Of a stretch of 52,282 bases of DNA, positions 6,303 through 51,786 are shown piece by piece. Within the stretch, counting starts at the first letter, position 1; each line of letters opens with the position of its first letter. Origin of the DNA: Chloroflexota bacterium (GTDB taxonomy: Bacteria; Chloroflexota; Anaerolineae; Anaerolineales; Villigracilaceae); the NCBI GenBank assembly GCA_026390015.1, contig JAPLGS010000121.1, positions 13,172 through 65,453 of the forward strand, given 5' to 3'. The position numbers and the translations under genes were made by a program. The notes under the pieces are model-generated. The model was not told the origin of the DNA. It made no database searches and saw only the letters and a program-made list of their open reading frames with translations.

Positions 6303-6338
6303 CTTTGAAAATATATTATGCAGCACCGGAGCGGCATC

Positions 6339-14118: not shown

Positions 14119-14188
14119 TGTAGGTACGAGTTTAGTAGTTCGACTAAAAGCAACCAAAATTGCAACTTCAGAACCAAGGAGAATACAT

Positions 14189-15640
14189 ATGATCAGTAAC
14201 CGCCCCGCACTCGAACCGCTCCGCTCTGCATATCGGCTCCAGTATCTCACCGATCAGCAGTTGGACAAACTTCAGGAAGCCACGCTGGAAATTCTGGAAA
14301 ATGTCGGGGTCAAAGTTCCATCTGAGAAGGCGTTAAAAGTTTTTGCTGAACACGGCGCGAATGTGGATAAAGCCACTCAGATCGTCAAACTAAACCGCGA
14401 TCTGGTTTTTAAGGCAATGAAAACCGTGCCCCGTTATTTTACGATGGGCGCGCGTGTTCCAGAATATGACTTGAACCTTGAAGACGGAACAACCTACTTC
14501 ACAACTGATGGCTGCGGTGTGGAATTCGTTGATCTGGGCACAGGTCAGGCGCGCCCGTCATCCAAAGCGGATGTTGGCCTGATGACGCTTGTCGCAGACT
14601 ATCTACCCTCGATCGGATTTATCTGGCCCATGGTCAGCGCACAAGATTGTGGGCGCATGTCGCCGCTCCACGAATTGGATGTCATCTGGAATAATACGAG
14701 CAAACATGTTGGGTCTGAAACGATCATGGGCGGACGCGAAGCAAAATATGCCGTGGAAATGGCAACGGTCATCTCGGGATCGAAAGAAGAATTACGCAAG
14801 CGCCCTCCACTTTCATCACTGATCTGCACGGTTTCGCCGCTAATGCAGGATCAACCCGGCATCGAAGCCGCGATGGTTTTCGCAGAGGCGGGAATCCCTG
14901 TAGGTTTTCTATCCATGCCAACGTTAGGTACAACCGCGCCGTCCACTCAAGCCGGTGCGCTTGCCATGGGCGACGCCGAGATCATCAACGCCACAGTCCT
15001 CGTACAGTTGATGTTCCCAGGCTGTCCGGTCTATCATTCGATGATGCAGGCCTGGGCAGATATGCGCACCGGCGCCTATGTTAGTTATCCGCGTGATGCG
15101 CGCGGCCGCTATGGAGTTGTGGATATGGCGCATCATTGGGGCATGTCTTCACTGGGCGCGTGTTATGGGACAGATTCAGCACTGCCCGGCACGTGGCAAT
15201 CTGCTGCGGAACCCGCGCTGGATCCATTTCTGGCGGGTTTGGTTAGCCCGGAGATCGTCACCGGCATGGGATTGGCCCGTACTTATACCAGGCTTTTTCC
15301 TGAACAAATTATTCTTGATGATGATTTGTATCAACGCGCCCGCGCCTATTTACAGCGCATGGATGTGGACGACGAATCGCTGGCGATGGAATCGATCGCC
15401 AACGTTGGACCCGGCGGACATTTTCTCGGACAGAAACATACTCGGTCTCACATGAAAACCTCTCTCGTGCGCGGTGTCACTCATCAACTAAACGAGCAAA
15501 ATAAATATCGAGAGCCTCTTGAAGTCGCCCGTGAACGCGTGCGCTGGATCATCGAGAATCACAAACCTGAACCGCTTGAATCAAGTAAGCAGGTAGAATT
15601 AACCCGCATCGTTGCCGCGGCAGATAAAGAATTGGGATAA
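14189..15640 (+). CDS. MttB-superfamily methyltransferase, paralog 1
   Basis: A 483-residue member of the trimethylamine/glycine-betaine:corrinoid methyltransferase superfamily (COG5598), a TIM-barrel enzyme that moves a methyl group from a quaternary or tertiary amine to a cobalamin protein. The conserved C-terminal GPGGHFLGQKHTRSHM and the N-terminal ATLEILENVGVKVPSEKAL blocks support this. No in-frame TAG is present, so it lacks pyrrolysine and belongs with the MtgB-like non-pyrrolysine group. The ATG at 14189 is used because AAGGAG lies 8 bases upstream; the frame is open further upstream but overlaps the permease. It is followed 97 bp later by a second paralog. Confidence 0.85.
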   Translation: MISNRPALEPLRSAYRLQYLTDQQLDKLQEATLEILENVGVKVPSEKALKVFAEHGANVDKATQIVKLNRDLVFKAMKTVPRYFTMGARVPEYDLNLEDGTTYFTTDGCGVEFVDLGTGQARPSSKADVGLMTLVADYLPSIGFIWPMVSAQDCGRMSPLHELDVIWNNTSKHVGSETIMGGREAKYAVEMATVISGSKEELRKRPPLSSLICTVSPLMQDQPGIEAAMVFAEAGIPVGFLSMPTLGTTAPSTQAGALAMGDAEIINATVLVQLMFPGCPVYHSMMQAWADMRTGAYVSYPRDARGRYGVVDMAHHWGMSSLGACYGTDSALPGTWQSAAEPALDPFLAGLVSPEIVTGMGLARTYTRLFPEQIILDDDLYQRARAYLQRMDVDDESLAMESIANVGPGGHFLGQKHTRSHMKTSLVRGVTHQLNEQNKYREPLEVARERVRWIIENHKPEPLESSKQVELTRIVAAADKELG

Positions 15641-15737
15641 TGTTTATAAACTCGAAACAAACTTTAGTTGATGCTTTTATCCGGCAATAGAAGGCTGAAG
15701 TCCGCGTTCCAAAAAAATAGTTTCTGGAAAACAAATT

Positions 15738-17180
15738 ATGGAAACCGACCTGAGAGTTCTATCGGATAACGAAGTTACACAAGTCCATGAACGAACACTG
15801 TCCATTCTGGCGGCCACCGGTGTGCGGGTGGATACAGCGTTGGGTCGTAAGATTCTAAAAAAGGCAGGGGCGGATGTAAACGCAACCTCGAACGTTGTTC
15901 GTTTTCCGCGTGACTTGATCGAAGAATGTCTGAAGCAAGCTCCGCGCAAATTCACTTTAGGCGGTCGTCGGCCAGGTTGGGAATTCCCGATGAATGAGAA
16001 TCTCTGTTCACTGGTCGCAGATGGCGGCGCATCATTCGCAATGGACAACATAACCGGCGAACGGCGCGAGGCTAACTACGCGGACTGGCTCGAAGCCACA
16101 CACATGATAGACACTTTGGATGAAGTGGGCGTCTACTGGGCCATGGTGGACCCGGGCTTTTTTCAAAAATCCAGCGGAGATTATGTAAACTATCTGCGCC
16201 AGATGATGACCAATTTTTCAAAGCATCTGCAAGACAGCACTCATACCATTGAAGAATCGCGCTGGATGCTCGAAGTATTGGGCACCGTGTTTGGCGGAAA
16301 AGAAAACGTTCGAAAACTGAAACCATTTTCCTTTCTGATCACACCCATCTCCCCCATGGTTTTCGAGGCGGAACATACCGATGCGTATCTTGAAATGGTT
16401 GATTGGGGCATTCCCGTTGCGATCATGCCCATGCCGATGATGGGCGGAACATCGCCGGCAAGTTTGATCTCGACGATCCTGCTTGCCAATTGCGAAACGC
16501 TCGCCATGTTGTGCCTGGTACAAGCCGCCTCGCCGGGCACGCCCGTCATCTACGCCGCCTCTCCCGCGATCATGGATCCCTACACCGGCCGATTCACCGG
16601 CAGCGAAGTGGAGCATGGCTTGATGGGCGCGGCTGTAACTGAGATGGCGCGTTCATATGGATTACCCGTTGAAACATCCACTGGAAGCACGGGACATTAC
16701 CAGCCGGGTGTGCGCGCCAGCTATGAACGCTCATTAAATTGGGTGATGGCAACACTGTCGTGGCCTGACCTGTTGGTGGGGCCCGGTCAATTGGGCGGAT
16801 CCATGCTCCTCAGCCTTGAGCAACTATTGATCGATGTGGAGGTGTTCCGCCGTTCTTCACGCCTTTCTTCAGGCATCGACACACGGGTCAAAGAATGGCT
16901 CGAAGTTGACCTGGCCGCGGTCGGGCATGGTGGAAATTTTCTGAGCCGCCGCTCCACTCGCGACTCATTGCGCAACGGTGAAGTCTACATGACAGACTAC
17001 GACGCGCGAGATTCGTATGAAGCCTGGTCTGCCGCTGGCAAGCCCAGCATGATGGATGAACTAAAACCCAAAGTTCAGGAAATTCTCAAGTCACATGTTT
17101 CAATGCCACTCGCTGAAGAGATCGAGTGCGAACTTGGCAAGATAGAACAACGCGCCTACGAAGGAATCAAGGTCGCTTGA
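15738..17180 (+). CDS. MttB-superfamily methyltransferase, paralog 2
   Basis: A 480-residue paralog of the preceding gene. It shares the SILAATGVRVDTALGRKIL start block, the MPMMGGTSPASLISTILLANCE core and the GHGGNFLSRRSTRDS end motif. No TAG codon occurs in frame. The GGTSPAS motif differs from GTTAPST in paralog 1, so the two probably differ in substrate or corrinoid partner. Only a weak ribosome site (CTGGAAA) precedes the ATG. Substrate unknown; glycine betaine, proline betaine, carnitine and trimethylamine derivatives are family possibilities. Confidence 0.85.
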   Translation: METDLRVLSDNEVTQVHERTLSILAATGVRVDTALGRKILKKAGADVNATSNVVRFPRDLIEECLKQAPRKFTLGGRRPGWEFPMNENLCSLVADGGASFAMDNITGERREANYADWLEATHMIDTLDEVGVYWAMVDPGFFQKSSGDYVNYLRQMMTNFSKHLQDSTHTIEESRWMLEVLGTVFGGKENVRKLKPFSFLITPISPMVFEAEHTDAYLEMVDWGIPVAIMPMPMMGGTSPASLISTILLANCETLAMLCLVQAASPGTPVIYAASPAIMDPYTGRFTGSEVEHGLMGAAVTEMARSYGLPVETSTGSTGHYQPGVRASYERSLNWVMATLSWPDLLVGPGQLGGSMLLSLEQLLIDVEVFRRSSRLSSGIDTRVKEWLEVDLAAVGHGGNFLSRRSTRDSLRNGEVYMTDYDARDSYEAWSAAGKPSMMDELKPKVQEILKSHVSMPLAEEIECELGKIEQRAYEGIKVA

Positions 17181-17285
17181 TCAGAACCTGGCTTTCAAAA
17201 CGAATATCAAAGACGCATTAATTTCGAGCCAACCCTTTTCTCAATTGATGTGTTTTCATGAAACTCCACCAGAAGGACATCCTCC

Positions 17286-18719
17286 ATGTATTTTAAGAGC
17301 CAGGTACTAACCGATTCAGAAAAAGAACAGATCCATAATGAAACATTACAGATATTGAAGAGGACCGGCGTCAAATTTCATAGCAATAAAGCATTGAAAT
17401 TATTGGAATCAAATGGCGCGGTCGTGGATCGGGAAAAGAAAATTGCATACATTCCATCCGAAATGGTGGATCAGGCGATCAAAACTTCACCTTCATCATT
17501 TGTTTTGGGAGCGCGCAACCCAATATACGATTATCAAATCCCCTCCCCCGTCTCGCGCTTTGCCCTGGATGGTACCGGTTCCTTTGCCCAGGATTTTTAT
17601 ACCGGAGAACACCGCTACGGAACAGCAAAAGATAGCGAACTCGGCTTGCGTGTCTTTCAAAATATGGATATGGGCGTAATGGCCTGGCCGCCCGTTTCGG
17701 CGGAAGATAAACCCGCTTCTTCGCGCCCTCTGCATGAATGGGCTGCCCTGATGAAGTTTTGCTCGAAGCATGGAGAGCATGAAATCCATAACATTGGTCA
17801 GGCTCCTTTTTACGCAGAGATGCTGATTGCGATCATGGGTAGTGCGGAAGAAGTTCGTGCGCGTCACGCGTATTCATTAACCTACTGCCCCGTTTCTCCG
17901 CTCGTGCACGATGGCCCCATGATGGATGCGTATTTTGAAATGGGAAGCCTCGATGTTCCCATTATGGTTTTGCCCATGCCAGTGCCTGGCATGACCGGAC
18001 CAGCCAGCCTGTTCAGCACGATCTGTCTTGCAAACGCTGAGGCGCTTTCCTCAATTGTGGCTTTTCAACTTGCATATCCTGGTCGTCCAATGATATTTAG
18101 CAGCGCCACCGGCACCGTCGACATGCGCAATGGCACCTATCTGGGAGGCACTCCTGAAGTGGGATTAATGTCTGCCGCGCTGGTCGAGATGGGACGCTAC
18201 TACGATCTGCCCGCCTGTTCAGCAGGTTGCACAGCCGACGCACGTCAGACCGGGGCGGACGCGGTTCTCGAAAAGATCATTACCACCATTCCGCCAGTGC
18301 TGGCAGGCTCAGATATCATTGTTGGGATAGGAGTACTCGAAAGCGATCAACTGTTGGTGCTAGAACAGATCGTGGTGGACAACGAGATCGCGCATATTTG
18401 CGAACGAATTTTCCAGAGCGTAGACACCAACCCTGGCCGAACTCTCACGAACGATGTTCATGATATTGGCCCCGGCGGAAACTTTCTATCACGCAAATCA
18501 ACGCTAAAATTCGCGCGCAGCAAGGAAGTCCATTTTTCAAGCCTGCTCGACCGTCACACGCTGGAACAATGGATGCAACTAGGAAAACCGTCCATGTATA
18601 CAAATGCGCGCAAAAAAGTGGAGGAAATCCTCGCGCAGCCGATTCAAGATCCGCTTACCGATGAAGTTTCAAACAAGTTGGAAGAGATCCTCATGAGGGC
18701 AGATAAGGAACTTGCCTGA
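17286..18719 (+). CDS. MttB-superfamily methyltransferase, paralog 3
   Basis: A 477-residue third paralog with TLQILKRTGVKFHSNKALKLL, PGMTGPASLFSTICLANAEAL and GPGGNFLSRKSTLKFAR. It lacks pyrrolysine. An AAGGA site lies 10 bases before the ATG. It is closer to paralog 2 than to paralog 1 by the central GxxxPASL and C-terminal GNFLSR motifs. It ends the plus-strand block; the following 335 bases hold repeats. Confidence 0.85.
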   Translation: MYFKSQVLTDSEKEQIHNETLQILKRTGVKFHSNKALKLLESNGAVVDREKKIAYIPSEMVDQAIKTSPSSFVLGARNPIYDYQIPSPVSRFALDGTGSFAQDFYTGEHRYGTAKDSELGLRVFQNMDMGVMAWPPVSAEDKPASSRPLHEWAALMKFCSKHGEHEIHNIGQAPFYAEMLIAIMGSAEEVRARHAYSLTYCPVSPLVHDGPMMDAYFEMGSLDVPIMVLPMPVPGMTGPASLFSTICLANAEALSSIVAFQLAYPGRPMIFSSATGTVDMRNGTYLGGTPEVGLMSAALVEMGRYYDLPACSAGCTADARQTGADAVLEKIITTIPPVLAGSDIIVGIGVLESDQLLVLEQIVVDNEIAHICERIFQSVDTNPGRTLTNDVHDIGPGGNFLSRKSTLKFARSKEVHFSSLLDRHTLEQWMQLGKPSMYTNARKKVEEILAQPIQDPLTDEVSNKLEEILMRADKELA

Positions 18720-29900: not shown

Positions 29901-30075
29901 GATTAAGAGCCGCTTCGGCCTCAGAGCGGGCCTGGACCAGCAGCTGATTCCGCATTTCCAACTGAAACTGACGCTTCTGCAATTCATCCAGAAGATGCTG
30001 GTTATTCACCTCTGCAGGAACGTCGGAAGATTTCTTTTCATTACTTATGTTTGACGGTTTGATCTTATGTTTCAT
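26980..30075 (-). CDS. Hybrid histidine kinase (PAS-GAF-PAS-GAF-HisKA-HATPase-REC)
   Basis: A 1031-residue soluble hybrid kinase with no clear membrane segment. The order is a basic coiled N terminus (1-55), PAS (about 55-170), GAF (about 185-335), PAS (about 345-465), GAF (about 475-625), a coiled linker, HisKA with FLANMSHELRTPLNS, HATPase_c with NLLNNAVKFTPKNG and GTGLGLALVKK, and a C-terminal receiver with ILIADDNEVN, VILMDLQMPQVNG and the Lys in VSKPFS. It autophosphorylates on the HisKA His and passes phosphate to its own receiver. It is the first large gene of the operon, 58 bp upstream of the second kinase. The signal is cytoplasmic and unknown. Confidence 0.9.
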   Translation of the reverse strand: MKHKIKPSNISNEKKSSDVPAEVNNQHLLDELQKRQFQLEMRNQLLVQARSEAEAALNQYTDLYDFAPVGYLTLARDGTIRQANLAAANLLGMEHHELAQRRLGAFVSIESNSTYTDFLEKLISGTGKDTCELALGKKEKGSLWARLEATCFEGGHECRVLLTDITERKQAASLLQARIRLSEFSDSHSLDEFLQESLDQAESLTGSQIGFAHFLEADQKTLKLQMWSSNTLKNMCTAEGKGSHYAVDQAGVWADCVSVRAPLIHNNYPNLPLRKGLPEGHAPVLRELVVPILRNDLIVMIMGVGNKPTDYDEKDVVALSQLANSTWDIVQRKRVEKELQESEEHVRVIFETLSEGIALNEIVFNSDGEMVDYKVLEVNDAFYRVADFDKDKIIIGNTATDLYGMDEQTIKYFWENHKNTTETIISEFLSPKSKRTFIVSTSPFINNRFVTSFQDITDRKRAEMERQVFSEITEGLVATGDLHEFLWLVHNSISKLVYAENFFVILHDKNTDLFEEVYSVDKFDPPGPPARLRRSTSAYVFRSGQPFLSTPARFDELIMQGEVELVGTNSPSWLGVPLKTAGEILGVMVIQDYETPDRYSKYDMDLLTSIATQVALVLERKQTEQLIRQNASELELRVEERTLDLIRANRAKDEFLANMSHELRTPLNSIMGFSELYLEGVYGPFNEKQGQTIQTVQSSGQHLLGLINDILDISKIEAGKLELHPEEIGVHEICQSSLIYIKPMADKKSITVEYSSSPATAEVFADPKLLKQILVNLLNNAVKFTPKNGTVKLEAAADPGLSLMRFSVTDTGIGITPEDQQKLFKPFVQIDSSLSRQYEGTGLGLALVKKMVEMHGGSVAVQSDAGVGSQFTFVLPWNQTMEIKADPGLPDMVSEKHDPKQKALPAGCGKILIADDNEVNVIMLMDYLENRGHQVFVAHHGGEVLQEAQRVSPDVILMDLQMPQVNGFEATGRLRKDPQFASVTIIGLTAFAMDGDRERCLEAGMDEYVSKPFSLKDLNQMIENFINHSPI

Positions 30076-30107
30076 GGAATCATATGTTCCTGATTGTCAG
30101 AAAGCAA

Positions 30108-30254
30108 TCATTGAACAGGGAATTTCCGAAGAACATTCCCGACGGAAGGATTCACAACAGCATTATTTTGATGGCAAAATATAAATTCCCTGTAAGGTGA
30201 TGCGGATGAATGTCCCCCGATCTTACATAACGTGGATTGCAAGACCACTTTCAT
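30108..30254 (-). CDS. Possible 48-residue leader protein of the signalling operon
   Basis: An ATG at 30252-30254 is preceded by a strong GAGGAG ribosome site at 7 bases. The 48-residue frame (MKVVLQST start, RKFPVQ end) has no membrane segment or recognised family; it holds two cysteines. It lies between the extended -10 promoter and the hybrid kinase, 32 bp upstream of the kinase ATG. The strong ribosome site is the main evidence. It may be a leader peptide or a real small protein. Confidence 0.4.
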   Translation of the reverse strand: MKVVLQSTLCKIGGHSSASPYREFIFCHQNNAVVNPSVGNVLRKFPVQ

Positions 30255-30287
30255 AGTGCGCTCCTCAGAATAATAGAAATAAAAAAT

Positions 30288-30296
30288 AGTATAGCA
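30288..30296 (-). promoter_or_regulatory. Extended -10 promoter of the signalling operon
   Basis: The minus strand reads TGC followed by TATACT (30288-30293), an extended -10 element. No clear -35 box is found at 16-18 bp. Transcription would start about 27 bases before the small reading frame's ATG. Confidence 0.45.
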
Positions 30297-30450
30297 CCAA
30301 TCGGAGTGTATAGAAGATTGCAATATCGATATAAGCATAGATCGCCGTAGGGTCAGTTCTTATGTGACACAATCCAAAATAGGCAGTACCACATAACTGG
30401 CTATGAACAATTCTTTCTTCCACTAATTTCACGGATTTTGCTGATTTTTT

Positions 30451-30634
30451 AGTTCAAATTGGCGTGAGTTAGCGAAATACCTACCCTGACGGGTGGCGCA
30501 AGGTTACTTTCAGGTTAAACCAATTAACTTTCAAGTTAAACCAATTAACCATACTGTCTATCCTTTATCTTATTTGGGCGTTTAGATTTAGCTCAAATTG
30601 GCGTGAATTAGCGAAATACCTGCCCTGGCGGGGG
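30451..30634. repeat. Pair of 45-bp direct repeats flanking a tandem array
   Basis: The copies lie at 30451-30494 and 30590-30634. They share TCAAATTGGCGTGA and TTAGCGAAATACCT and then CCCTG-CGGG with few differences. The distance between starts is 139 bp. The 21-bp array sits between them. The CCCTG-CGGG end could form a small hairpin in each copy. Confidence 0.7.
30501..30554. repeat. 21-bp tandem repeat, array 2
   Basis: Units at 30513-30533 and 30534-30554, plus a partial unit at 30501-30512, match array 1 at 18858-18939. The 17-base word AGTTAAACCAATTAACC is identical in both arrays (18919-18935 and 30534-30550). The two arrays bracket the whole signalling operon. Confidence 0.8.
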
Positions 30635-30842
30635 TGCCAGGGAACGCAGCGCGGTGCGGTGTTCGCGGCTGAGGGTTGGGTAACGGACGATCGTCGAACA
30701 GGCAAGTTATGCTCCATTGCCATTTTTAGTAAGGCAACAGAACTACAGCTTTGATCGAAGCGCATCAGTGGATTATGTTGGTAAACCAATTAGATGCGCA
30801 ACTTAACGCGAGTAATGATGTTTCCCCGCTCGAACTTTAATT

Positions 30843-32417
30843 TCATGGTCCCGGTTTATTTTCGTCAGTGCGTTGTATTTCCGAATTCGCGGGTTTCACC
30901 GTGCCGTACAAGCCCGAAAGTTTTTTCAAAACCTCAAACGAAACATCCAACCCACCGGTGTTTAAGGGTTTAACAAGAACCGGGGCGCTCTGTTTGATGG
31001 TATTGGTCGGGCTCGCAAGATCAACCTTCGCTATGGAACTGCGCGGATCCATTGGCGGGGAGGACTGCTTTTCCAGATTTGACGGAGCCAGCAACCAGGG
31101 CGGGCTGTATTTTCCGCGCCCACTTTCATACCGTTGAGCAGCTTCGTCCTCTCCGGTTAGGATCTCAATTTCCGTAGGCAGATCCACCGCGATCTGCGGC
31201 CTGCGATTGAATGCGGTCAGAATTCCTGAAACTGAAATCCACTTGCCGTTGAAGTCATCCGGTTCAATCTCGGAACTTTTTAGAAGATCCAATGCTTTGT
31301 CCCACAGGATGATCGTGAAGCCTTTGGCTTTCCAACTGCCCAGATTGATAAGAATGTGCGGGTGACCATCCGGGGATGTCCCTCGGAAAACTTCGGTCAC
31401 CAAGCCAACCACTGTCACCGTTTTTCCAAGGTTTCGCAAAATTGGGTAGCGGTCTTTTGCCGCGTAAGTGATCTTATGAACTGGAGCTGTTTGATAAGCA
31501 ACTTCCACACTGGAATATGCCTCGGACTTCAAGGCAAGAAAATCACTGAGGGAAGGCACTGCTTCGAGTGAGCTGGCGCAAATCTTCCGAAACAATTGGA
31601 TATGACTGCGCAGATCAGCTAGTGTTTCCAATTCCTGAAGCAGTGGAGATTGGAACGGATCTAAAAAAGTTGAACGGTTGAACAGCAATCCCTCTTCACC
31701 GGTTTGATACTTACTCCACAACTGGGGTCTGCGGGCCAGGCCAGACAGCGCAAGGAAAATGATGATCTCGGAGAATCTATCGAGGCGGGAATTAAAATCC
31801 GTGCTGACGCGGGCCGGGTGCTGAAAATGGATATTCCCCAGCTCAGACGAAGCCTTGCCCTCCAATGCGGGAACGTACATTCCGTCATAATCCACCAGGA
31901 TGAGTTTATGATCTTTGACCATGATGTTTCTGTGTGACAGGTCACCGTGGGCAACACCTAGGTCTGCGAGTTTTTCTGCCAGAGTCACAAATTCTTTAGC
32001 AAGATCTTCAATAGCCGCCAGATCATTCAAGTTGGAATACAGCCAACTCTCCAGGGTTTCTCCATCCACCCAATCCATATAAGTGATCGGAAACAACTGG
32101 TTCTTAAATGAAATTCCCCTGGCCTGATAATGAATGGGCAGAAAAAAAGGCTGCTTTACTTTTATCAAATACGTGGCAATGGCTGCATATCTTTGGGTAC
32201 GGTCTTCCACCGGTTTGTGGAAACAACGAACCGCCAGATTCTGACCCTCTTTGGAGGTCATGCGATAGGTTAGCGCAAATCCACCTGAACGGACTCTCGG
32301 AAGCCCCCACAGGTCAAGCTCCGAGACACTATCGCGCAGGAAATCGAGGGTGAAATAAACCCCCGGGTTTTGCAGGGCGGCTTGATATTCATTAAAGGAT
32401 GGGTAACGATATCTCAT
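30843..32417 (-). CDS. Protein-kinase-like protein with predicted OB-fold domain
   Basis: A 524-residue protein. Residues about 35-280 form a kinase-like domain: glycine-rich RSGGFALTY, HGDLSHRN with catalytic Asp 159 and Asn 164, and VDYDG with metal Asp 176. The usual beta-3 lysine position reads AVRCF, with Arg 64. The activation region is short. Residues about 325-425 look like an OB-fold (TVTVVGLVTEVF, LINLGSWKAKGFTIILW, WISVSGILTAF), and the last 100 residues are disordered and proline-rich. It starts one base after the phosphatase stop codon and is the third gene of a VWA/PP2C/kinase set, as in the TerY-P triads described by Aravind and co-workers. Those kinases often carry a helix-hairpin-helix tail; this one seems to carry an OB-fold. 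Targets unknown. Confidence 0.75.
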   Translation of the reverse strand: MRYRYPSFNEYQAALQNPGVYFTLDFLRDSVSELDLWGLPRVRSGGFALTYRMTSKEGQNLAVRCFHKPVEDRTQRYAAIATYLIKVKQPFFLPIHYQARGISFKNQLFPITYMDWVDGETLESWLYSNLNDLAAIEDLAKEFVTLAEKLADLGVAHGDLSHRNIMVKDHKLILVDYDGMYVPALEGKASSELGNIHFQHPARVSTDFNSRLDRFSEIIIFLALSGLARRPQLWSKYQTGEEGLLFNRSTFLDPFQSPLLQELETLADLRSHIQLFRKICASSLEAVPSLSDFLALKSEAYSSVEVAYQTAPVHKITYAAKDRYPILRNLGKTVTVVGLVTEVFRGTSPDGHPHILINLGSWKAKGFTIILWDKALDLLKSSEIEPDDFNGKWISVSGILTAFNRRPQIAVDLPTEIEILTGEDEAAQRYESGRGKYSPPWLLAPSNLEKQSSPPMDPRSSIAKVDLASPTNTIKQSAPVLVKPLNTGGLDVSFEVLKKLSGLYGTVKPANSEIQRTDENKPGP

Positions 32418-32418
32418 T

Positions 32419-33201
32419 TTATTGGATGGTGATCGATGTCAGACTGGTATCGTCGTTACGAAGAGTGTTTTCGGCGCGCTGTTGATCCACCCAATTTGAA
32501 AATACCTGGCCTTCGAATCGTGGTCTACCTAGCAGGTCGAAAAATTCCGAAACCAGGCCAGAGCTCTCCTCCATTTTTCTGATCAGAAATGCCGCCAACG
32601 CATCTGTCGTTAATAATAGCTGATCCCCGCGCTGCCAATCGTTGGAGAAAATTTGTACGCTGGAATCCATTTTTAGAAAATGGTTCAAGGATGAGAGTGA
32701 AGGGATGAGGGCGGGACGATTATTAAAATCGGCGCTGTTCCCGATCGGTTTACAAAAGATCACTTTTTGATTACGCACCTGAAAAATGCAAGAGTCGCCT
32801 ACACATAAGGCCTTGAACCTGCCGCCTGGTTTTTGAGAGGTTTCATGGGGGAAAATGGTCAACCACAACAGGGTCGCAAAAGATCCCATTTTCATTTTTT
32901 CCTCGGTATGCCAGGGCAATTCCCGCTGCTGGAAATGTTTCTTCCATTCCAGCTGACACTTATCGAGGTTGGTCTGGAAATCATTCGGATCTGGAATTGC
33001 GCGGCTGAAGGTTTTAACAAGGATGGAAGCCCACAACTTTGAAAAAGTGGCGGCGGTGGCGCCATCTGAAATGGCACATATGAAAGGTGAATCCAATTTT
33101 GTGATGGGCCCATTTTTGTGTGTAAAAAATGTATCCTCATTTTCAGAGGACACATTTCCCATTTTTGGAACCGTCATGTATTTCCACCGAACTTGATTCA
33201 A
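32419..33201 (-). CDS. PP2C-type serine/threonine phosphatase
   Basis: A 260-residue PP2C-like enzyme. Metal-binding motifs are in place: NEDTF (21-25), ISDGATA (44-50), GSFATLL, GDSCIF, LLTTDALAAFL and the late RNDDTSL. It removes phosphate from Ser/Thr residues, probably reversing the neighbouring kinase. The TTG start at 33199-33201 is chosen because GAGG lies 7 bases before it, and because the VRWKY segment it adds matches the N-terminal tryptophan common to this subgroup. An ATG 8 codons later is the alternative. It lies 9 bases after the VWA stop codon. Confidence 0.8.
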   Translation of the reverse strand: MNQVRWKYMTVPKMGNVSSENEDTFFTHKNGPITKLDSPFICAISDGATAATFSKLWASILVKTFSRAIPDPNDFQTNLDKCQLEWKKHFQQRELPWHTEEKMKMGSFATLLWLTIFPHETSQKPGGRFKALCVGDSCIFQVRNQKVIFCKPIGNSADFNNRPALIPSLSSLNHFLKMDSSVQIFSNDWQRGDQLLLTTDALAAFLIRKMEESSGLVSEFFDLLGRPRFEGQVFSNWVDQQRAENTLRNDDTSLTSITIQ

Positions 33202-33210
33202 GTGCTGGCC

Positions 33211-34056
33211 TCAAAGCGCGATCGCAGGTCTCGTTCCGATCTCCAAAGCTTGAACAATACCCGCGATGTCGGCATTGTAAACAAATCCGTGAGCGTTTTC
33301 ATTAAGCGGGCTGTCCAATAACTCCGACCCTGTCCGCAGCATGGCTGGGGGTAAAACACTTGAAAGTTCGAACATGATCTTTGAGAAATGATCGGGGAGT
33401 TTGTTAATATCATCCGGGAAAAAGATCTGCTCGTCAAATTCACGGGACGATGTATGAACGGTCAAAAGAATAACGTTACCGTCATTGGTTGCCAGGGAAG
33501 TCAATTCGGCGGCGGGTTTGCGCGGATCACCGTCGTTGGCTTCGCCGTCTGTTAGGTTGATGACCGTGGGAGGATATGAGTTGGGATATTTTTCGACCCA
33601 CGCCCGAAGAATATCACGCGAATGTTCCAAGGCCTGGCACATGGGTGTTTGTCCTTTGCTAACCGGATCCACCCAAACCGGGAGCTTCATAGTCACTTCT
33701 ATATAACCGCCGGCACCGTCAGATTCTTTCTTGAGGCGGTCTTCTATTCTTAATGGATGCTGATATAGATCATCGATCCAAACCAGATCCTGCCCTTTTA
33801 GATCCCCGCCCAGGGAAGATTCAACTTCGAAACCATATCCGATCACGCCCACCTGATAATATCGGCGCACATCCATATCCTTGGATGCTGAAACGATCAG
33901 AGACTGGATCGTCTTATTCAAAGCATCCGCCACGAAAACAGATTTTTTCGGGTTGCTCGGAATTCCCATCACAGGATAGGACATGGAACTGGAATGGTCG
34001 ACCAGGAAAAGGAAACAGGTGGGGTTTATACGGGAAATTTCAGCTTGATAAGACAT
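33211..34056 (-). CDS. TerY-like von Willebrand factor A protein
   Basis: A 281-residue cytoplasmic VWA protein. The metal-ion-dependent adhesion site is complete: DHSSS (20-24), the Thr in GQTPM (about 137) and the Asp in NLTDGE (about 169). VWA proteins of this kind bind partners through the metal site. It has no signal peptide. It is the first gene of the triad, with a promoter 35-63 bases upstream. Three genes in the same order and strand support a phosphorylation-controlled complex. No tellurite-resistance genes (terZ, terD or terC) are seen in the window. Confidence 0.8.
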   Translation of the reverse strand: MSYQAEISRINPTCFLFLVDHSSSMSYPVMGIPSNPKKSVFVADALNKTIQSLIVSASKDMDVRRYYQVGVIGYGFEVESSLGGDLKGQDLVWIDDLYQHPLRIEDRLKKESDGAGGYIEVTMKLPVWVDPVSKGQTPMCQALEHSRDILRAWVEKYPNSYPPTVINLTDGEANDGDPRKPAAELTSLATNDGNVILLTVHTSSREFDEQIFFPDDINKLPDHFSKIMFELSSVLPPAMLRTGSELLDSPLNENAHGFVYNADIAGIVQALEIGTRPAIAL

Positions 34057-34090
34057 AATTCAACCTTTCTAATGTTTAGGTATCGCAGGT

Positions 34091-34119
34091 AGGATAGCAC
34101 AAAATCCTTGATTTGTCCG
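34091..34119 (-). promoter_or_regulatory. Promoter of the VWA/PP2C/kinase operon
   Basis: On the minus strand CGGACA (34114-34119) and TATCCT (34091-34096), preceded by TGC, are 17 bp apart. The TGn extension and 17-bp spacing make this a good promoter candidate. A start about 7 bases downstream of the -10 box gives a leader of about 27 bases. Confidence 0.6.
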
Positions 34120-34423
34120 TAAGTTTTTAATAAACAAAATAGGCGTTCGTTCGAGACCCTGTTTGTTGCCCCTTTTATAAGCATATGAAAAATCCCGCCA
34201 GTTTACAGAATTTTCCAGACATTTCCGAACAAATACAATTTTATCGTATTTATCGGCGTGGTTGCCTGCTCAGGGAATACGAGTTATTCACATCCGCATG
34301 ATTTGAGAAAACCAATATTTTATGAGTACAAATAATTCTCGAAAAATATATTTTTCTGGTACACTCAGGCTGTTCAATCGAAATACCATACCGGGGAAAC
34401 CCGTTTTCTTAGGAGACCGAGTT
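34120..34423. other. Divergent regulatory region
   Basis: The region between the VWA operon (minus) and the roadblock gene (plus) holds no gene that I can support. A plus-strand TGG-TACACT extended -10 word lies near 34360, about 60 bases before the roadblock ATG. No other motif is seen. Confidence 0.4.
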
Positions 34424-34798
34424 ATGACAAAATCCCGTTCTGACCAAATGGTGGAACGTCTTCGTTATATGCAGGCTTATGCGCCCGATATTGAAGCCTC
34501 TGCAATCGTTTCTGTGGATGGCCTTATCATGGCATCTGCGCTTCAACAGGGTGTTGAGGAAGATCGTGTTTCCGCAATGTCTGCGGCAATGCTCAGCCTG
34601 GGCGAACGTATTTCCGGTGAACTTGGACGGGGCATTCTTGAACAAGTCTACATCAAGGGTGACAACGGTTCGATCGTGCTTACCGCCATCGGCGAAGAGG
34701 CGGTCTTAACTGCAATGGCACGCAAAGAGGCGAAGCTGGGTATGATCTTCCTTGAAATGCGCCGCGCAGCCGAAGACCTTGTGAAATTAGTTGGATGA
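34424..34798 (+). CDS. Roadblock/LC7 domain protein
   Basis: A 124-residue protein. Residues about 15-110 match the roadblock/LC7 fold: IEASAIVSVDGLIMASAL, AAMLSLGERISGEL, GSIVLTAIGEEAVLTAM. In bacteria such proteins pair with small Ras-like GTPases (MglA type) as MglB-like activators or dimer platforms. No GTPase gene is near. The ATG is set by GGAG 9 bases upstream; the frame is open further upstream without a ribosome site. A strong terminator follows, so it appears to be a single-gene unit. Gene partner unknown. Confidence 0.85.
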   Translation: MTKSRSDQMVERLRYMQAYAPDIEASAIVSVDGLIMASALQQGVEEDRVSAMSAAMLSLGERISGELGRGILEQVYIKGDNGSIVLTAIGEEAVLTAMARKEAKLGMIFLEMRRAAEDLVKLVG

Positions 34799-34837
34799 AC
34801 AGAAGAAAATACCCACCCAGAAAAGTTAACGACCCCG

Positions 34838-34877
34838 AATGGGGAGGGCTTAAACGCCCTCCCCATTCTCTTTTGTT
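34838..34877 (+). terminator. Rho-independent terminator after the roadblock gene
   Basis: A perfect 12-bp stem (34838-34849 with 34856-34867) around a six-base loop TTAAAC, followed by CTCTTTTGTT. The stem is GC-rich (GGGGAGGGC). Confidence 0.9.
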
Positions 34878-34963
34878 AAACATTCATCCTTGCGAGGTCG
34901 GTGCCATTCTGCCCACAAGTATTATTTTCCATACAGAATTGATAATCATGGAGGTAACAAATA

Positions 34964-36589
34964 ATGACTAAATATTTATTTTTCACTGGCGGCGTTGTTT
35001 CATCTGTTGGCAAAGGCGTGACCGCAGCCGCAATGGGCTTGCTCTTGAAAGAGCGGGGCTTCAACGTCGCTGTACAAAAACTTGACCCATATATCAACGT
35101 GGATCCGGGCACGATGTCACCATACCAGCATGGCGAGGTGTATGTGCTGGATGACGGCGCCGAAACAGACCTCGACCTTGGTCATTATGAACGGTTCATT
35201 GATAACCGCCTGACACGGGTCAGCAATTTCACTACGGGCCAGGTCTATGCAGAGACTATTGCGAACGAACGCCGTGGTGATTATCTGGGCGGCACGATCC
35301 AGGTCATTCCTCATATCACCAATGAGATCAAACGCCGTATCGGATTAGTTGAAAAGGAAACAGGCGCAGAGATAGTCATTCTTGAAGTTGGCGGTACCGT
35401 TGGTGATATTGAATCACAACCATTTCTTGAGGCACTGCGCCAGCTCCGCAATGAAGTTGGGCGCGAGAATTGTCTGTTCGTGCATGTAACCTGGCTTCCG
35501 ACCATCGGAGCAACCGGCGAGATAAAAACCAAACCCACGCAGCATTCCGTAGCCGCACTCCGTTCCATTGGTATCTCGCCAAATATTATTATCGCGCGCG
35601 CAGATCAACATGTGGATAAATCTTTATGTGAAAAGATCGCGCTTTTTTGTGACGTGGATAAAGACTCTGTGATTCCCATGGCCACTGCAGATGTGCTTTA
35701 TGAAGTTCCTTTACTCCTGGAAGAGCTCGGTGTGGGAGAATTGGTTCTTCGCAAACTTGGTTTGACCGCAAAGCAGAAAGCAAATATGACCCCGTGGAAG
35801 AAACTTGTCGAAGATGTTCGCAGGCCAAAATCCACGGTACAAGTTGCGCTGGTGGGTAAATATGTTGAGTTACAAGATGCTTATATGTCTGTCCGTGAGG
35901 CTCTCAAACACGCCGCGCTCGCGAACGATGTTGAAGTTGAGATCAGCTGGATACACTCCACGGATCTCGAAAAAGATAAAAGCTGGGATGTTGTCAAAAA
36001 AGCCGATGCAGTTCTCGTGCCTGGCGGATTTGGTTCGCGCGGAATTGAAGGCAAGATCCTCGCGGCGCGATACGCCCGTGAAAACAAAGTTCCATACCTT
36101 GGCTTATGTTTGGGGATGCAGGTAATGTGTATTGATTTTGCGCGCAGTGTGCTGGACCTCGAGGATTCCAACTCCACTGAATTTGACCGGAGCACGGAAA
36201 ACCCTGTCATCGACATCATGCTCGACCAGCGTTCCATCACCAATATGGGCGGAACCATGCGCCTCGGACTCTATCCGTGCCTGCTCCAGCAAGGGTCGAA
36301 AGCTTCCGCTGCTTACGCAGTTCCCAAAGTGGACGAGAGGCATCGTCACCGTTTTGAGTTTAATAACTCCTACCGCGTGGAATTCGAGAAACATGGCATG
36401 CTCTTTTCAGGCCTATCCCCCGACGGCAGATTGGTTGAGATCGTTGAGCTGGCAGATCATCCATACATGGTTGCGAGTCAATTCCATCCCGAGTTTTTGT
36501 CGCGTCCCATGAAACCTCATCCCTTGTTTGTCGGGTTGCTCAAAGCGGCAAAGGAAAGAGCGAAAAAGAAGATATCAACAAATGAATAA
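34964..36589 (+). CDS. pyrG: CTP synthase
   Basis: A 541-residue enzyme, the normal length. It converts UTP to CTP with ATP and glutamine-derived ammonia. The synthetase domain (1-265) starts [20 protein letters not shown] and shows [13 protein letters not shown] and GGTVGDIES. The glutaminase domain (about 295-535) shows [11 protein letters not shown], the nucleophile in GLCLGMQ (about Cys 381) and the His in QFHPEF. A GGAGG site lies 9 bases before the ATG. The stop codon overlaps the start of the next gene by 8 bases. Confidence 0.97.
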
Positions 36590-47495: not shown

Positions 47496-49559
47496 TCAGG
47501 GAAAGGGAAACGTCGCAGTTCTACCTCCGCAGAAAAAGACAGCGTTGTAATCATCCGCATAGAGCGCAGCTCTTTGTTTTTCGAGCAGGCCGAGCGATTT
47601 CCATAATGGGTCGGCATTTACGATCACGATCACATTAATGAAGTATTCATTACAAAGAGAATCAAGCAGATTCCAGTTTTGAGCATTTTCCATTTTAAAT
47701 ATTTTGCTGATCTGCTTAGCTTTGGAAAAATATTTGTCTAAAGGCACGCCATAAGCAGTGCGATCTGAGATGGCAGACTGACGCATTCCATACAATCCGC
47801 TGGGGCGATTGAGCACGCCAGCTGGATTGTATTGAACAATAACATCCTCGGGAAGCGTCTGGCTGATCATGGTGTAAGCCTGCCGCGCAGAGAAAATCTG
47901 TCTGCCAGCCTCAGACCCGAACGAAAAATAATGTCCAAAGCGCAGTAGAGAAACATCCAGAATGGTGGTGGAAACACCGAGAACTGCCAGCAAAACTAGA
48001 TTATATTTTGTCGTTTGAGAAAGTGCAAAGCGCGAACTCGGCGATCTTACGAAACCTTCCAGAACATCGACACCCCAGATCAATAAAATAAATTGACCGG
48101 GCAGCCAGGCGCGCCAGCCAAGATCATTATTCCCAATTAAGATGGAACGCGCAAAAGTACCAATGATAAATGAGACCCCAAGTAAAAGCGCTTCGGCAAA
48201 GTAATATGGATGATTACGAAAATTGTCTTTGTTGCTTTTTAACCAAATGAATGCTACGAGGAAGAAAAAACCTAGTTCCAAAAAATAGTTGAGCGGGAGA
48301 AAGATCAATCGGATGAATGATCTCCACAGGAAAGAAGAGTTGACTAAAAAAGCATCTGCCAGGCGAAATGAACGAACATCAAATGTAATGGGAAACGCAC
48401 CATTACCGCCGCCGCTGCCTGATAACAATCCCAACAAAAACGGTCCAGCCAAAAGGAGCGCCACAACTCCCGCAAAAAGCATCGGCAAAAGGAGTGCGCG
48501 TTGTTCTTTTTGAAAATACAGGCATAACATCCAAATCCCCCAGAACAATACGAAGACAAACGTAACCCACACCGAAAGCCCAAGCGCGGAGGCGAATGCC
48601 ACGCCCGAAAAAATAAGTGCGATAAATTGTTTACTGCGTGTTTGTCGGCGCACAGAATGAACGAGCAGCATGCCCACACATCCTGCGATAAGACTCGCCA
48701 CATGGTGCGGGACCCAAAAAAGAGAACCGACCCACGCGGTGATCTGTTCATTCCAATGCTCAAGATCACCACGCGCGTAAACGTTGCCGAAACCAATCAG
48801 CGCAATCGCTGGGATAATATCCAGCCCTGTGATGGACAGTGACGCAATACCGATCAATGCGCGCTGCCAAACTTTACTGGCAGCGCGTCCATCACGCATG
48901 CGAAGATAGAAGGCGATCAATGCCATGAGCGCAATTCCGCACCAAATGATGCTGGCAAACAGGGCGGTACGCGCATCAACCAGCCTGCCACCTGCAATAT
49001 CGATTATGCTGCCGAGTATGTACCAAAAGAAATATAGAAAGGTCAGCTTTACATAATGACCGGGATAGTAACTTGGGTTTATCGGCGGCACGCCTGTACG
49101 GGTCATGGCGTCAATGATGGAAACACGAGTAGTGTGGTCAAGGGCTGCGACGCTAAAATAAAGTTCCTGATGCCCCCACTGCAGATCCACGAGACAGAAG
49201 ATGGCAAAAATTACCCAGCCAAGCGAAACCCAAAAGAATATCCGCCACTGACCATCTTGCGGCAAAGTTGGTTTTTCATATACCAACAAGGCGACAAAGA
49301 CAGCCGCAATCAATCCCGTAACGATCAACGCAACATTTAGAGAAAGCAAACTTGCCACTAGGTAATAAAAGATGGGACAGATGGCAACTGAAAGCAACAG
49401 GGAAACGGCAAACCGCGCAGGCAAGAGGCGCGTCCGAAATTCGAAAAGATCGAACACCCAGCCGAAAATATATCCAGGAAAGACGAGCACAAGCGGGAAA
49501 AGAGAAAAACCTAGGAGCGTGCCGATAATATCTTGTAATGTAAAATTCAAAACAGGCAA
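47496..49559 (-). CDS. Large multi-pass membrane protein, paralog A
   Basis: About 687 residues with some fifteen membrane helices and a C-terminal soluble domain of about 130 residues. It is a clear paralog of the 49720-51786 protein: FTLQDI, FPGYI-GW-FDLF, MTRTGVPPINPSYYPGH, GWRAWLPGQFILLIWGVDVLE and RPSGLYG. A GT-C-type glycosyltransferase is likely but not certain. There is no ATG near the N terminus. The TTG at 49557-49559 is chosen because AGAGG lies 5 bases upstream; the paralog's ATG aligns three codons later, also at a TTG. It ends a few bases before the next gene. Confidence 0.7.
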   Translation of the reverse strand: MPVLNFTLQDIIGTLLGFSLFPLVLVFPGYIFGWVFDLFEFRTRLLPARFAVSLLLSVAICPIFYYLVASLLSLNVALIVTGLIAAVFVALLVYEKPTLPQDGQWRIFFWVSLGWVIFAIFCLVDLQWGHQELYFSVAALDHTTRVSIIDAMTRTGVPPINPSYYPGHYVKLTFLYFFWYILGSIIDIAGGRLVDARTALFASIIWCGIALMALIAFYLRMRDGRAASKVWQRALIGIASLSITGLDIIPAIALIGFGNVYARGDLEHWNEQITAWVGSLFWVPHHVASLIAGCVGMLLVHSVRRQTRSKQFIALIFSGVAFASALGLSVWVTFVFVLFWGIWMLCLYFQKEQRALLLPMLFAGVVALLLAGPFLLGLLSGSGGGNGAFPITFDVRSFRLADAFLVNSSFLWRSFIRLIFLPLNYFLELGFFFLVAFIWLKSNKDNFRNHPYYFAEALLLGVSFIIGTFARSILIGNNDLGWRAWLPGQFILLIWGVDVLEGFVRSPSSRFALSQTTKYNLVLLAVLGVSTTILDVSLLRFGHYFSFGSEAGRQIFSARQAYTMISQTLPEDVIVQYNPAGVLNRPSGLYGMRQSAISDRTAYGVPLDKYFSKAKQISKIFKMENAQNWNLLDSLCNEYFINVIVIVNADPLWKSLGLLEKQRAALYADDYNAVFFCGGRTATFPFP

Positions 49560-49607
49560 TGGTACCTCTGGCAAATTATTAGGAATTGTAAATAAATTCC
49601 TTCAACT

Positions 49608-49719: not shown

Positions 49720-51786
49720 TTATTTCACATAATCACCGCAAGCGAAAAGGGCATAATGAGCGTTTTCGTAAATTGACAGGCGTTGCAATTCGAGTACCGG
49801 AATACTGCTCCAGATCGGATCAATATCTTCGATGATCAAAATGTCAATTGAATGTTCATGGCAAATACCATCGATGGAATGCCAGTTGGATACATTCTTA
49901 ATTGTAAATAATTGGCCAACTTCATTTACTAATCTATTAAATGTTCCGAAAGGAACACCATATGCCGTGCGGTCTGAAATAGTCATTTGATGCGTCCCAT
50001 ATAAACCACTCGGGCGGTCCACGTAATTTAGCGGATTATTTTGCGTAATAACATCGGCAGGAACATGCTCGCGCAGGAAATCATACGCCAGGCGGGCTGA
50101 GTAGTATTTATGCGTCTCACCTGCGCCCGTCATAAAGGGCCATGCAGTCCGTAGTAGAACAGCATCCATAACGGATGTCAATATTCCGATCGAAAGAAAT
50201 ACCAGTATTAATTTTCTGTTCTTTTTTGCCTTTAATTTTCTGTTCTTTTTTGCCTCCCCCGTTAATGAAGAAACAGGCTGGGAAGTAAACATCAGATTTT
50301 CCAGAACATCCACTCCCCAGATCAGCAGGATAAATTGACCCGGCAGCCATGCGCGCCAGCCGAGATCGTTGCTTGTTATGAGCGTGGAGCGTAAACAGGA
50401 ACCGATCAAGAATACGATCGCCAATAAGATAGCTTCCGCCAGGAAAAACGGGCTGGAGCGGATCGCCGCTTTTCCCTTGATCTTAAACCAATAAATTGCC
50501 GCCATAAAAAAGAAACCAAGTTCCATAATATAGTTTACCGGCAGCAGCGCCAGCATGATCAGAGAGCGCGCAAACAGAGTCCAGTCTTTTACAAAAGATT
50601 CAAGCTGTAAAAATGAGCGTACCTCAAAAATGATCGGAAATTGCTCGCCGGCTCCTCCGCCAGCACCTTGAAATAATCCGATCAGAAAAGGAATGGAAAG
50701 AAACAACGCCACCATCCCAGTAAAGATCATCGGCAGGATCAGTCCGCGTTCTTCGTTCAATATAAAAAGCGCAGCAAGCCAAACACACCAGAAGACAACG
50801 AACACAAAAGCAACGTAAACTGAAAGCCCGAACGCAGAAGCAACCCCCAACCCGGCAATGACCATGATAGTGAATTGCTTTAAGATAGGCCTGCCTCGCG
50901 TGGATTGCGCAAGCATCATTGCACTCATTCCAGCGATCAATGCCGCTACATGATGGGGAACCCACAGATTGGAAGCGATCCAGGAGGGTATCCATGTATT
51001 CCAAACATCCACTGAACCAACGATCAGACCGGTTCTCGCCATGAGGAAGAGGATGGGAAATACATCAAGGCCGCTGACGGATAATAAGCCAATCCCGATC
51101 CTGGCTGACCTCCAGGCTGCTGCTGTACTACTTGCATTTCTCTGGCGAATATATAGCGCGATGACAGCCATCAATCCGATCCCAGACCAGGCAGAACTGG
51201 CGTTCAACGCGGCGCGCGCGTCCACATATTTCCCGCCAATTACATCCACCATGCTGCCGAGGATATACCAGAAGTAATATAGAAAAGTAAGTTTGACGGG
51301 ATGCCCCGGATAATAACTGGGATTTACAGGCGGTATTCCTGTGCGGGTCATGGCCTCGATGATGGAGACGCGTGTGGTTTGATCGTATGAGGTAACACTG
51401 AAATAAAGCTGGTCATTCCATTGTATGTTTATCAACGAAAAGATCGCAATTACAGCCCAAATAGCGCCAATCCAACAAAGGGACTTTGCGTTTGACGATA
51501 ATATGAATTTCTCTTTTATGCTGATAATTACAAACACTGCCGCGAATCCGCCCAGCGTGAAAAGTGCAAAATTAAACGAGAGCAGGCTTGAGGTCAGATA
51601 AAGAAGGATGGGGCCGACAGCGAAGGATAAGACGAGGCCGATCCCAAGTCGCACAATGGGCTGGCGAAGTCTAAAGTCGAAAAGATCGAACGCCCAGCCG
51701 AGAACATATCCAGGAAAAACAATTACGATTGGAAAAAGAAAAAAAGCAAGAGTTGCCCCAAGGATGTCTTGAAGTGTAAAGTTCAT
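49720..51786 (-). CDS. Large multi-pass membrane protein, paralog B
   Basis: A 688-residue membrane protein with about fifteen helices. It shares with paralog A the MTRTGIPPVNPSYYPGH loop, WRAWLPGQFILLIWGVDVLE and a C-terminal domain ending in a nucleotide- or sugar-like beta motif (IDILIIEDIDPIW ... YALFACGDY). One short lysine-rich repeat (KAKKNRKL, twice) lies near residue 520. It starts with ATG, 4 bases overlapping the flippase-like gene upstream (ATGA), so they are coupled. Role inferred: transfer or assembly of a lipid-linked glycan. Family not named. Confidence 0.7.
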   Translation of the reverse strand: MNFTLQDILGATLAFFLFPIVIVFPGYVLGWAFDLFDFRLRQPIVRLGIGLVLSFAVGPILLYLTSSLLSFNFALFTLGGFAAVFVIISIKEKFILSSNAKSLCWIGAIWAVIAIFSLINIQWNDQLYFSVTSYDQTTRVSIIEAMTRTGIPPVNPSYYPGHPVKLTFLYYFWYILGSMVDVIGGKYVDARAALNASSAWSGIGLMAVIALYIRQRNASSTAAAWRSARIGIGLLSVSGLDVFPILFLMARTGLIVGSVDVWNTWIPSWIASNLWVPHHVAALIAGMSAMMLAQSTRGRPILKQFTIMVIAGLGVASAFGLSVYVAFVFVVFWCVWLAALFILNEERGLILPMIFTGMVALFLSIPFLIGLFQGAGGGAGEQFPIIFEVRSFLQLESFVKDWTLFARSLIMLALLPVNYIMELGFFFMAAIYWFKIKGKAAIRSSPFFLAEAILLAIVFLIGSCLRSTLITSNDLGWRAWLPGQFILLIWGVDVLENLMFTSQPVSSLTGEAKKNRKLKAKKNRKLILVFLSIGILTSVMDAVLLRTAWPFMTGAGETHKYYSARLAYDFLREHVPADVITQNNPLNYVDRPSGLYGTHQMTISDRTAYGVPFGTFNRLVNEVGQLFTIKNVSNWHSIDGICHEHSIDILIIEDIDPIWSSIPVLELQRLSIYENAHYALFACGDYVK

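What the first reader, a model, noticed from the sequence alone, without database searches (positions are those of the whole stretch)
30843..34056. VWA / PP2C / kinase triad with an OB-fold tail on the kinase
Gene order and motifs match the TerY-P triad, but no other ter genes are present and the kinase ends in a probable OB-fold in place of the helix-hairpin-helix often seen. An OB-fold would tie a kinase-phosphatase switch to nucleic acids. Arg replaces the usual beta-3 Lys. It is the best candidate here for a little-described system, possibly stress or defence related.
Basis: partly seen in the sequence, partly recalled or inferred. Interest (0 to 1): 0.6.

Follow-up and report, generated by a model that had tools for sequence, protein, structure and literature searches.

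The report
Known TerY-P phage-defence triad, OB-fold kinase
Three adjacent bacterial genes form a metal-binding, phosphatase and kinase team of a kind already reported to protect bacteria from phages; the OB-fold tail on the kinase is real, but it is a known hallmark of this subtype rather than a new invention.

Summary
A tight minus-strand operon encodes a VWA protein, a PP2C phosphatase and a kinase with a C-terminal OB-fold. All three match PADLOC-DB: TerY 1.3e-85, PP2C 2.2e-32, STK_OB 8.3e-106, the last through the OB part. TerY-P-like modules with an OB-fold kinase are reported as stand-alone anti-phage systems (PMC11090510 citing Gao 2020), so "little-described" does not hold.

AlphaFold supports the OB-fold; nearest solved folds are Stn1 and RPA32 (Z 10.7, 9.8). 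Arg at beta-3 is normal: 10 of 10 OB-type kinases have it. Catalytic residues are kept and dN/dS against G308 is 0.05-0.20. The kinase model matches 5 of 57 genomes of the genus; the one other genome shown to share the site is G308. OB-type kinases from several phyla group together on a quick tree. TerD was not found in the genome.

Likely mechanism (inferred): the OB domain senses phage-related nucleic acid and tips a kinase/phosphatase switch built around the VWA protein. New member of a known kind; low interest.

The parts
33211..34056 (-). TerY-like VWA protein (281 aa), first gene of the operon; complete MIDAS (D20-S22-S24, T137, D170)
   Evidence: PADLOC TerY PDLC02224 1.3e-85; Pfam VWA 7.9e-5, just under cut-off; among the rows with a letter the MIDAS columns are D 52 of 52, S 52 of 52, S 53 of 53, T 60 of 60, D 61 of 61; 62 rows in all
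32419..33201 (-). PP2C-type protein phosphatase (260 aa), metal-binding Asp residues kept (D23, D46, D136, D200, D250; roles recalled)
   Evidence: Pfam PP2C_2 3.2e-7 over cut-off; PADLOC PP2C PDLC02222 2.2e-32; those columns are D in 74 or 75 of 75 rows
30843..32417 (-). STK_OB kinase (524 aa)
   Evidence: PADLOC STK_OB PDLC02223 8.3e-106, residues 4-402, profile 2-410 of 562
31518..32417 (-). protein kinase domain, residues 1-300; Arg64 at beta-3, HGDLSHRN catalytic loop (157-164), DYDG (176-179)
   Evidence: AlphaFold model aligns to PKR kinase (2a19_B) Z 16.6, rmsd 4.0 over 249 residues; motif conservation
31116..31472 (-). OB-fold domain with C-terminal helix, residues about 316-434
   Evidence: AlphaFold of the domain alone, pLDDT 79.2, pTM 0.73; Foldseek best E 2.4e-5 (RPA), VIA Z 10.7 (Stn1), 9.8 (RPA32)
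30843..31115 (-). low-confidence, probably disordered C-terminal tail (residues 435-524), no cysteine, with a short LKKLSGLYG segment partly predicted helical
   Evidence: pLDDT block means 27-37 from residue 431 on; segment seen; no Cys

Best explanation
This is a TerY-P anti-phage module of the OB-fold subtype. Shown: three co-directional genes for a VWA protein with intact MIDAS, a PP2C phosphatase with intact metal ligands and an active-looking kinase fused to an OB-fold. Inferred: at rest the phosphatase keeps the target (the VWA protein, a partner it recruits, or the kinase itself) unphosphorylated; phage replication exposes nucleic acid, most likely single-stranded DNA, which the OB domain binds; this shifts the kinase/phosphatase balance, and the metal-dependent VWA protein carries or relays the response that stops phage growth. 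Confidence in the family assignment alone is about 0.93; in the ssDNA-sensing switch about 0.4.
For: All three proteins match PADLOC models named TerY, PP2C and STK_OB, which bear consecutive accessions (that they form the TerY-P system entry is recalled). OB-kinase TerY-P-like modules are reported as stand-alone phage defence (PMC11090510, passages); TerY-P acts against T7-like phages (PMC7699616, passage) and Autographiviridae in P. aeruginosa, where most cells survive, though some death is seen (PMC10889362, passages; they do not say which tail that kinase has). The OB model is closest to Stn1 and RPA32 folds. Catalytic and metal residues are conserved. dN/dS against G308 is 0.05 (VWA), 0.20 (PP2C) and 0.20 (kinase). 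The kinase model matches 5 of 57 genomes of the genus, 4 of them through the OB part. OB-type kinases of Chloroflexota, Acetobacteraceae, a betaproteobacterium, a contig labelled Archaeoglobales and a Calothrix plasmid cluster on the tree (2 label changes, shuffled mean 9.7). In a more distant E. coli K-12 triad of the same order (yegL-pphC-yegI) the kinase autophosphorylates and the PP2C protein dephosphorylates it (PMC13232886 citing Rajagopalan, passages), so a kinase/phosphatase switch of this layout exists.
Against: The triad lies between two-component genes and roadblock/pyrG, not in an evident defence island; of ten neighbours scanned at L013, L006 and L102 with Pfam, eight had a match and none of those is a defence family I recognise. 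An OB-fold can also bind protein or small ligands. No effector such as a nuclease is encoded in the three genes.
Confidence: 0.6

Rival explanations
1. A TerY-P-like phospho-switch for chemical or metal stress rather than for phages, the OB-fold sensing damaged DNA or stalled replication.
For: TerY-P triads are tied to tellurite resistance and proposed as metal-sensing switches (PMC11090510 citing Anantharaman 2012). No known effector lies in the module.
Against: TerD was not found in the genome; the OB-kinase form is the one reported as stand-alone phage defence; patchy occurrence fits defence better than a housekeeping stress response.
Confidence: 0.22
2. A host signalling module working with the neighbouring two-component genes or the roadblock/LC7 protein.
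For: It sits next to a run of histidine kinase, response regulator, GGDEF and HD genes and diverges from a roadblock/LC7 gene.
Against: In ten related loci of the genus the roadblock and pyrG genes are present and the triad is not in the 9-15 kb fetched; at L003, L138, L013 and L006 the triad has other neighbours.
Confidence: 0.07
3. The kinase is a pseudokinase because Arg replaces the beta-3 Lys, so the module works by scaffolding only.
For: The beta-3 Lys is normally needed to position ATP (recalled from kinase literature).
Against: The other catalytic residues are kept (H157 103 of 103, D159 102 of 103, N164 103 of 103, D178 103 of 103). Arg and Lys alternate at this column (69 and 34 of 103 rows). 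A distant E. coli analogue, YegI, autophosphorylates although a cited paper's title says that it lacks conserved motifs.
Confidence: 0.08

Closest known systems
TerY-P anti-phage system, OB-kinase form (Gao et al. 2020, known through PMC11090510; PADLOC TerY / PP2C / STK_OB)
   Same: All three proteins and an OB-fold fused to the kinase C-terminus.
   Different: Here in a Chloroflexota genome; the kinase match to STK_OB stops at position 410 of 562, so the part after the OB-fold is not shared.
[quoted passage not shown]
   Same: VWA, PP2C and kinase.
   Different: There the kinase ends in a zinc ribbon and the triad sits with cnu genes; here the tail is an OB-fold followed by a stretch without Cys, and the adjacent genes are others.
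Triads whose kinase tail carries a helix-hairpin-helix-like segment (label recalled; mostly Actinomycetota)
   Same: Gene order and kinase domain.
   Different: Different tail, usually Lys at beta-3 (29 of 32), other part of the kinase tree.
E. coli K-12 YegL-PphC-YegI
   Same: VWA-PP2C-kinase order on one strand; short distant similarity of the kinases (30% over 70 residues, E 2e-4 for that one comparison) and of the VWA proteins (28% over 47, E 0.003).
   Different: None of the three matches the PADLOC TerY, PP2C or STK_OB models at E 0.01; yegJ lies between pphC and yegI; YegI is membrane-bound.
RPA32 / Stn1 OB-folds
   Same: Fold including the C-terminal helix.
   Different: 8 to 18% identity in the listed RPA32, Stn1 and CST rows; not fused to a kinase.

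Membership tests
TerY-P anti-phage system (OB-kinase form) | TerY-like VWA protein | tested here: met
   PDLC02224 1.3e-85, residues 1-278 of 281; MIDAS intact
TerY-P anti-phage system (OB-kinase form) | PP2C-type phosphatase next to it | tested here: met
   PDLC02222 2.2e-32, PF13672 over its cut-off
TerY-P anti-phage system (OB-kinase form) | Ser/Thr kinase fused to a C-terminal OB-fold | tested here: met
   PDLC02223 8.3e-106 over residues 4-402; kinase fold; OB-fold
TerY-P anti-phage system (OB-kinase form) | three genes adjacent | tested here: met
   gaps of 9 and 1 bases; triad also in 57 of 99 other kinase loci, 55 of them on one strand in VWA-PP2C-kinase order
TerY-P anti-phage system (OB-kinase form) | protects against phages | not testable with these tools
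   needs a plaque assay
Tellurite-resistance (ter) operon | TerD-family genes with the triad | tested here: not met
   PF02342: no match in the genome assembly, rated 95% complete; other ter families not searched
CoCoNuT-associated TerY-P | kinase with C-terminal zinc ribbon | tested here: not met
   the tail is an OB-fold and the stretch after it has no Cys
CoCoNuT-associated TerY-P | adjacent cnu genes | tested here: not met
   the adjacent genes are two-component, roadblock/LC7 and pyrG (CTP synthase, named by eye); no dedicated cnu search was made

The most novel reading that the evidence does not exclude
The OB domain is an RPA32/Stn1-like single-stranded-DNA sensor whose occupancy directly sets the kinase/phosphatase balance, which would make this a bacterial counterpart of DNA-damage checkpoint kinases that read ssDNA-bound OB-folds, used against phages.
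Probability: 0.25. Interest if true: 0.55.

Novelty: new member of a known kind. Interest (0 to 1): 0.2.

Why it matters
It extends a reported but mechanistically unexplained phage-defence module to another lineage and gives a compact OB-type version with close relatives. The RPA32/Stn1-like fold makes a concrete, testable prediction (ssDNA-dependent kinase switching) for a system whose trigger I did not find described in the listings of the paper searches made.

Tried and rejected
No relatives of the kinase in phage records or viral contigs (18 pattern matches, none confirmed). Plasmids gave 2 records, one with the OB-type triad. No Rfam match at gathering threshold in 30000-35000. Promoter-like sites were no more common than in shuffles (6 against 6.9); 9 terminator-like sites against a shuffled mean of 5.8, sd 2.4. 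GC content of the triad (0.483) equals the window's, so composition gives no sign of recent transfer.

Pfam on the OB part of the window alone gave only a sub-threshold DUF5818 hit. Sequence search of the OB alignment against the PDB gave three weak hits: a putative nucleic-acid-binding lipoprotein (E 0.0027 over 22 positions), Stn1 (0.6) and a ribosomal protein (0.76). The VWA protein had no PDB sequence match at E 0.01.

A short LxxLY segment in the disordered tail looked like a shared docking motif: 9 of 102 tails against 2.7, sd 1.6, maximum 7 in 500 shuffles; a stricter first pattern gave 8 of 102 against 1.5, maximum 5 in 200. The nine include the window with its two nearest relatives and two further pairs of near relatives, and the pattern was chosen after seeing the sequences, so I do not claim it. 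L150 lacks it.

The contig labelled Archaeoglobales (L004) is only 4120 bases and holds little but the triad; in the search of its phylum its own genome was the only match, 1 of 294. It may be misbinned, so I do not claim an archaeal origin.

Gao 2020, Anantharaman 2012 and the two Rajagopalan papers on YegI and PphC are not held; I know them only through papers that cite them.

Full report
What is there. On the minus strand three genes follow each other with gaps of 9 and 1 bases: a 281-residue VWA protein (33211-34056), a 260-residue PP2C phosphatase (32419-33201) and a 524-residue kinase (30843-32417). Pfam gives PP2C_2 above its cut-off, VWA just below its cut-off, and only weak kinase-like matches to the third protein (APH just above its cut-off; RIO1 and Pkinase below). 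PADLOC-DB gives clear matches for all three: TerY 1.3e-85, PP2C 2.2e-32, STK_OB 8.3e-106.

The kinase. AlphaFold on an alignment of eight OB-type kinases (A1) gives a kinase domain (residues 1-300, block pLDDT 64-95), an OB-like domain and a low-confidence tail. The kinase domain aligns to solved protein kinases (PKR, Z 16.6, rmsd 4.0, 249 residues). In 103 kinase-domain rows (window included; a locus may give two rows) His157 is H in 103, Asp159 D in 102, Asn164 N in 103 and Asp178 D in 103. The beta-3 position is Arg in 69 and Lys in 34 of the 103 rows. Counted once per locus, window left out, Arg occurs in 7 of 7 OB-type, 58 of 60 other-tailed and 3 of 32 kinases with the tail that I label helix-hairpin-helix-like. 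That label is from memory of the motif and was not tested against a library. With two further OB kinases (L138, L102) and the window, Arg is present in 10 of 10.

The OB-fold. The domain folded alone gives pLDDT 79.2 and pTM 0.73 with strands 31-45, 51-57, 65-69, a helix 71-79, strands 91-101 and 104-109 and a C-terminal helix 121-131. Foldseek lists RPA first (E 2.4e-5, TM-score by query 0.47; 53 matches at E 0.001 or better), with PriB, Stn1, SSB and lysyl-tRNA synthetase among the 50 rows shown. VIA-align places yeast Stn1 first (Z 10.7, rmsd 3.2, 115 residues) and RPA32 second (Z 9.8, rmsd 2.8, 101 residues); rows within 1 of each other are tied, and tRNA synthetase OB-folds follow at Z 8-9. 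Two relatives match Pfam tRNA_anti-codon over positions 1-70 of 75 at the same place, below its cut-off. A shared fold does not show what it binds.

The other two proteins. VWA MIDAS positions are invariant among the rows with a letter (52-61 of 62 rows). PP2C metal-binding Asp positions are D in 74 or 75 of 75 rows. Against G308 dN/dS is 0.05, 0.20 and 0.20 for VWA, PP2C and kinase, compared with 0.06 for pyrG and 0.13 for the roadblock gene; against G336 dS exceeds 1.5 and the ratios (0.06-0.12) are only rough (L002 and L003 are the G308 and G336 contigs). This is consistent with all three genes being maintained.

Relatives and gene order. Of 99 kinase loci other than the window's own, 57 have both PP2C and VWA genes close by; 55 of the 57 are on one strand in the order VWA-PP2C-kinase, and two (L012, L034) have the pair on the other strand. 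The 99 are the best 80 of 219 confirmed matches plus 19, so they are not a random sample. By tail, the 57 triads divide into 31 helix-hairpin-helix-like, 6 OB and 20 other. Other tails seen include repeats resembling WD40 and pentapeptides (by eye). One OB-type kinase (L024) has neither partner on its 4396-base contig. The OB-type triads L004, L138 and L102 match all three PADLOC models.

Distribution. In 301 genomes of the phylum, 75 match STK_OB at E 0.001, many of them weakly; 26 reach 1e-30 by my count of the listing, and among those only the window's own listed stretch runs into the OB part; a weaker match in G174 (6.9e-23) also reaches it. In the genus 5 of 57 genomes match at 1e-30; four of these matches (own, G301, G336, G308) run through the OB part, G327's does not. 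Elsewhere: 2 of 369 in the class around L013 at 1e-40, 1 of 294 in the phylum around L004 at 1e-60, 2 of 386 in the phylum around L041 at 1e-75; each set of genomes is a sample of a larger group.

Site. In G308 the triad lies at the same place: its triad contig aligns to window 30814-34365 and its pyrG contig starts within the VWA gene at 34004. In ten other genomes of the genus the roadblock and pyrG genes are present without the triad in the stretch fetched (9-15 kb); one of these, G301, carries a triad elsewhere. This fits a cassette gained before the split of the window's genome and G308, though loss in the others is not excluded; no exact boundary or insertion element was found.

Tree. 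On a quick tree of 102 kinase domains (SH-aLRT only, 41 of 99 inner branches weak) the OB label needs 2 changes, against 9.7 in shuffles, although its carriers come from several phyla; the 13-row group that holds all ten OB kinases has support 84 and includes three kinases without a detected OB-fold (two with repeat tails, one cut short). Several OB rows are long branches, so their place is unsure.

What is known. PMC11090510 (passages read) states that TerY-P-like modules with a kinase fused to an OB-fold instead of a zinc ribbon function as stand-alone anti-phage systems (citing Gao 2020) and that the OB-fold suggests oligonucleotide binding. PMC7699616 (passage) says TerY-P acts against T7-like phages. 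PMC10889362 (passages) shows TerY-P protecting P. aeruginosa at high and low multiplicity of infection, with Autographiviridae as its specificity. PMC4978471 (passages) describes a TerY-P island in Helicobacter. PMC13232886 (passages) reports, citing earlier work, that E. coli YegI autophosphorylates and that PphC dephosphorylates it; yegL, pphC and yegI stand in the same order but are only distant relatives of the triad here. Five searches of the paper library gave no paper on the trigger or mechanism in the listings I saw; one search listed 30 of 2,664 papers.

Mechanism. Shown: kinase, phosphatase and MIDAS residues in place, a predicted OB-fold, conserved linkage, low dN/dS, patchy occurrence. 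Inferred: the OB domain detects nucleic acid exposed in phage infection, the kinase and phosphatase set a phosphorylation state, and the VWA protein executes or relays it. The RPA32/Stn1-like fold favours ssDNA, but that is a prediction. The most likely alternative is a DNA- or metal-stress switch of the same build.

Verdict. Confirmed observation, correct family guess, but a known system: new member of a known kind, interest 0.2.

Noticed in passing
window 30448-30632: A 46-base direct repeat (copies 91% identical, 139 bases from start to start) just downstream of the kinase belongs to a dispersed intergenic repeat: the 767-base stretch has 15 matches, itself included, on 7 contigs of the genome.
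   Followed up: partly
window 30843-31115 (kinase tail); L138; L083; L084: A short LxxLY[GAS] segment recurs in otherwise disordered or differently built kinase tails; 9 of 102 tails against 2.7 in shuffles, weak because close relatives are counted.
   Followed up: partly
L102 and L150: Both OB-type kinases end, after the OB-fold and a low-complexity linker, in similar segments resembling the CFI-box C-terminal motif (name recalled; sequences).
   Followed up: no
L004: Kinase-OB protein with a C-terminal TPR array on a 4120-base contig labelled Archaeoglobales; possible misbinning.
   Followed up: partly
window 14054-18719: Three consecutive genes of the trimethylamine methyltransferase (MTTB) family after ABC transporter genes, with a DAO/GCV_T protein further upstream (6318-8672), suggesting use of methylated amines.
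   Followed up: no
window 47496-49574 and 49720-51786: Two large neighbouring proteins (692 and 688 aa) without any Pfam match at 1e-5.
   Followed up: no
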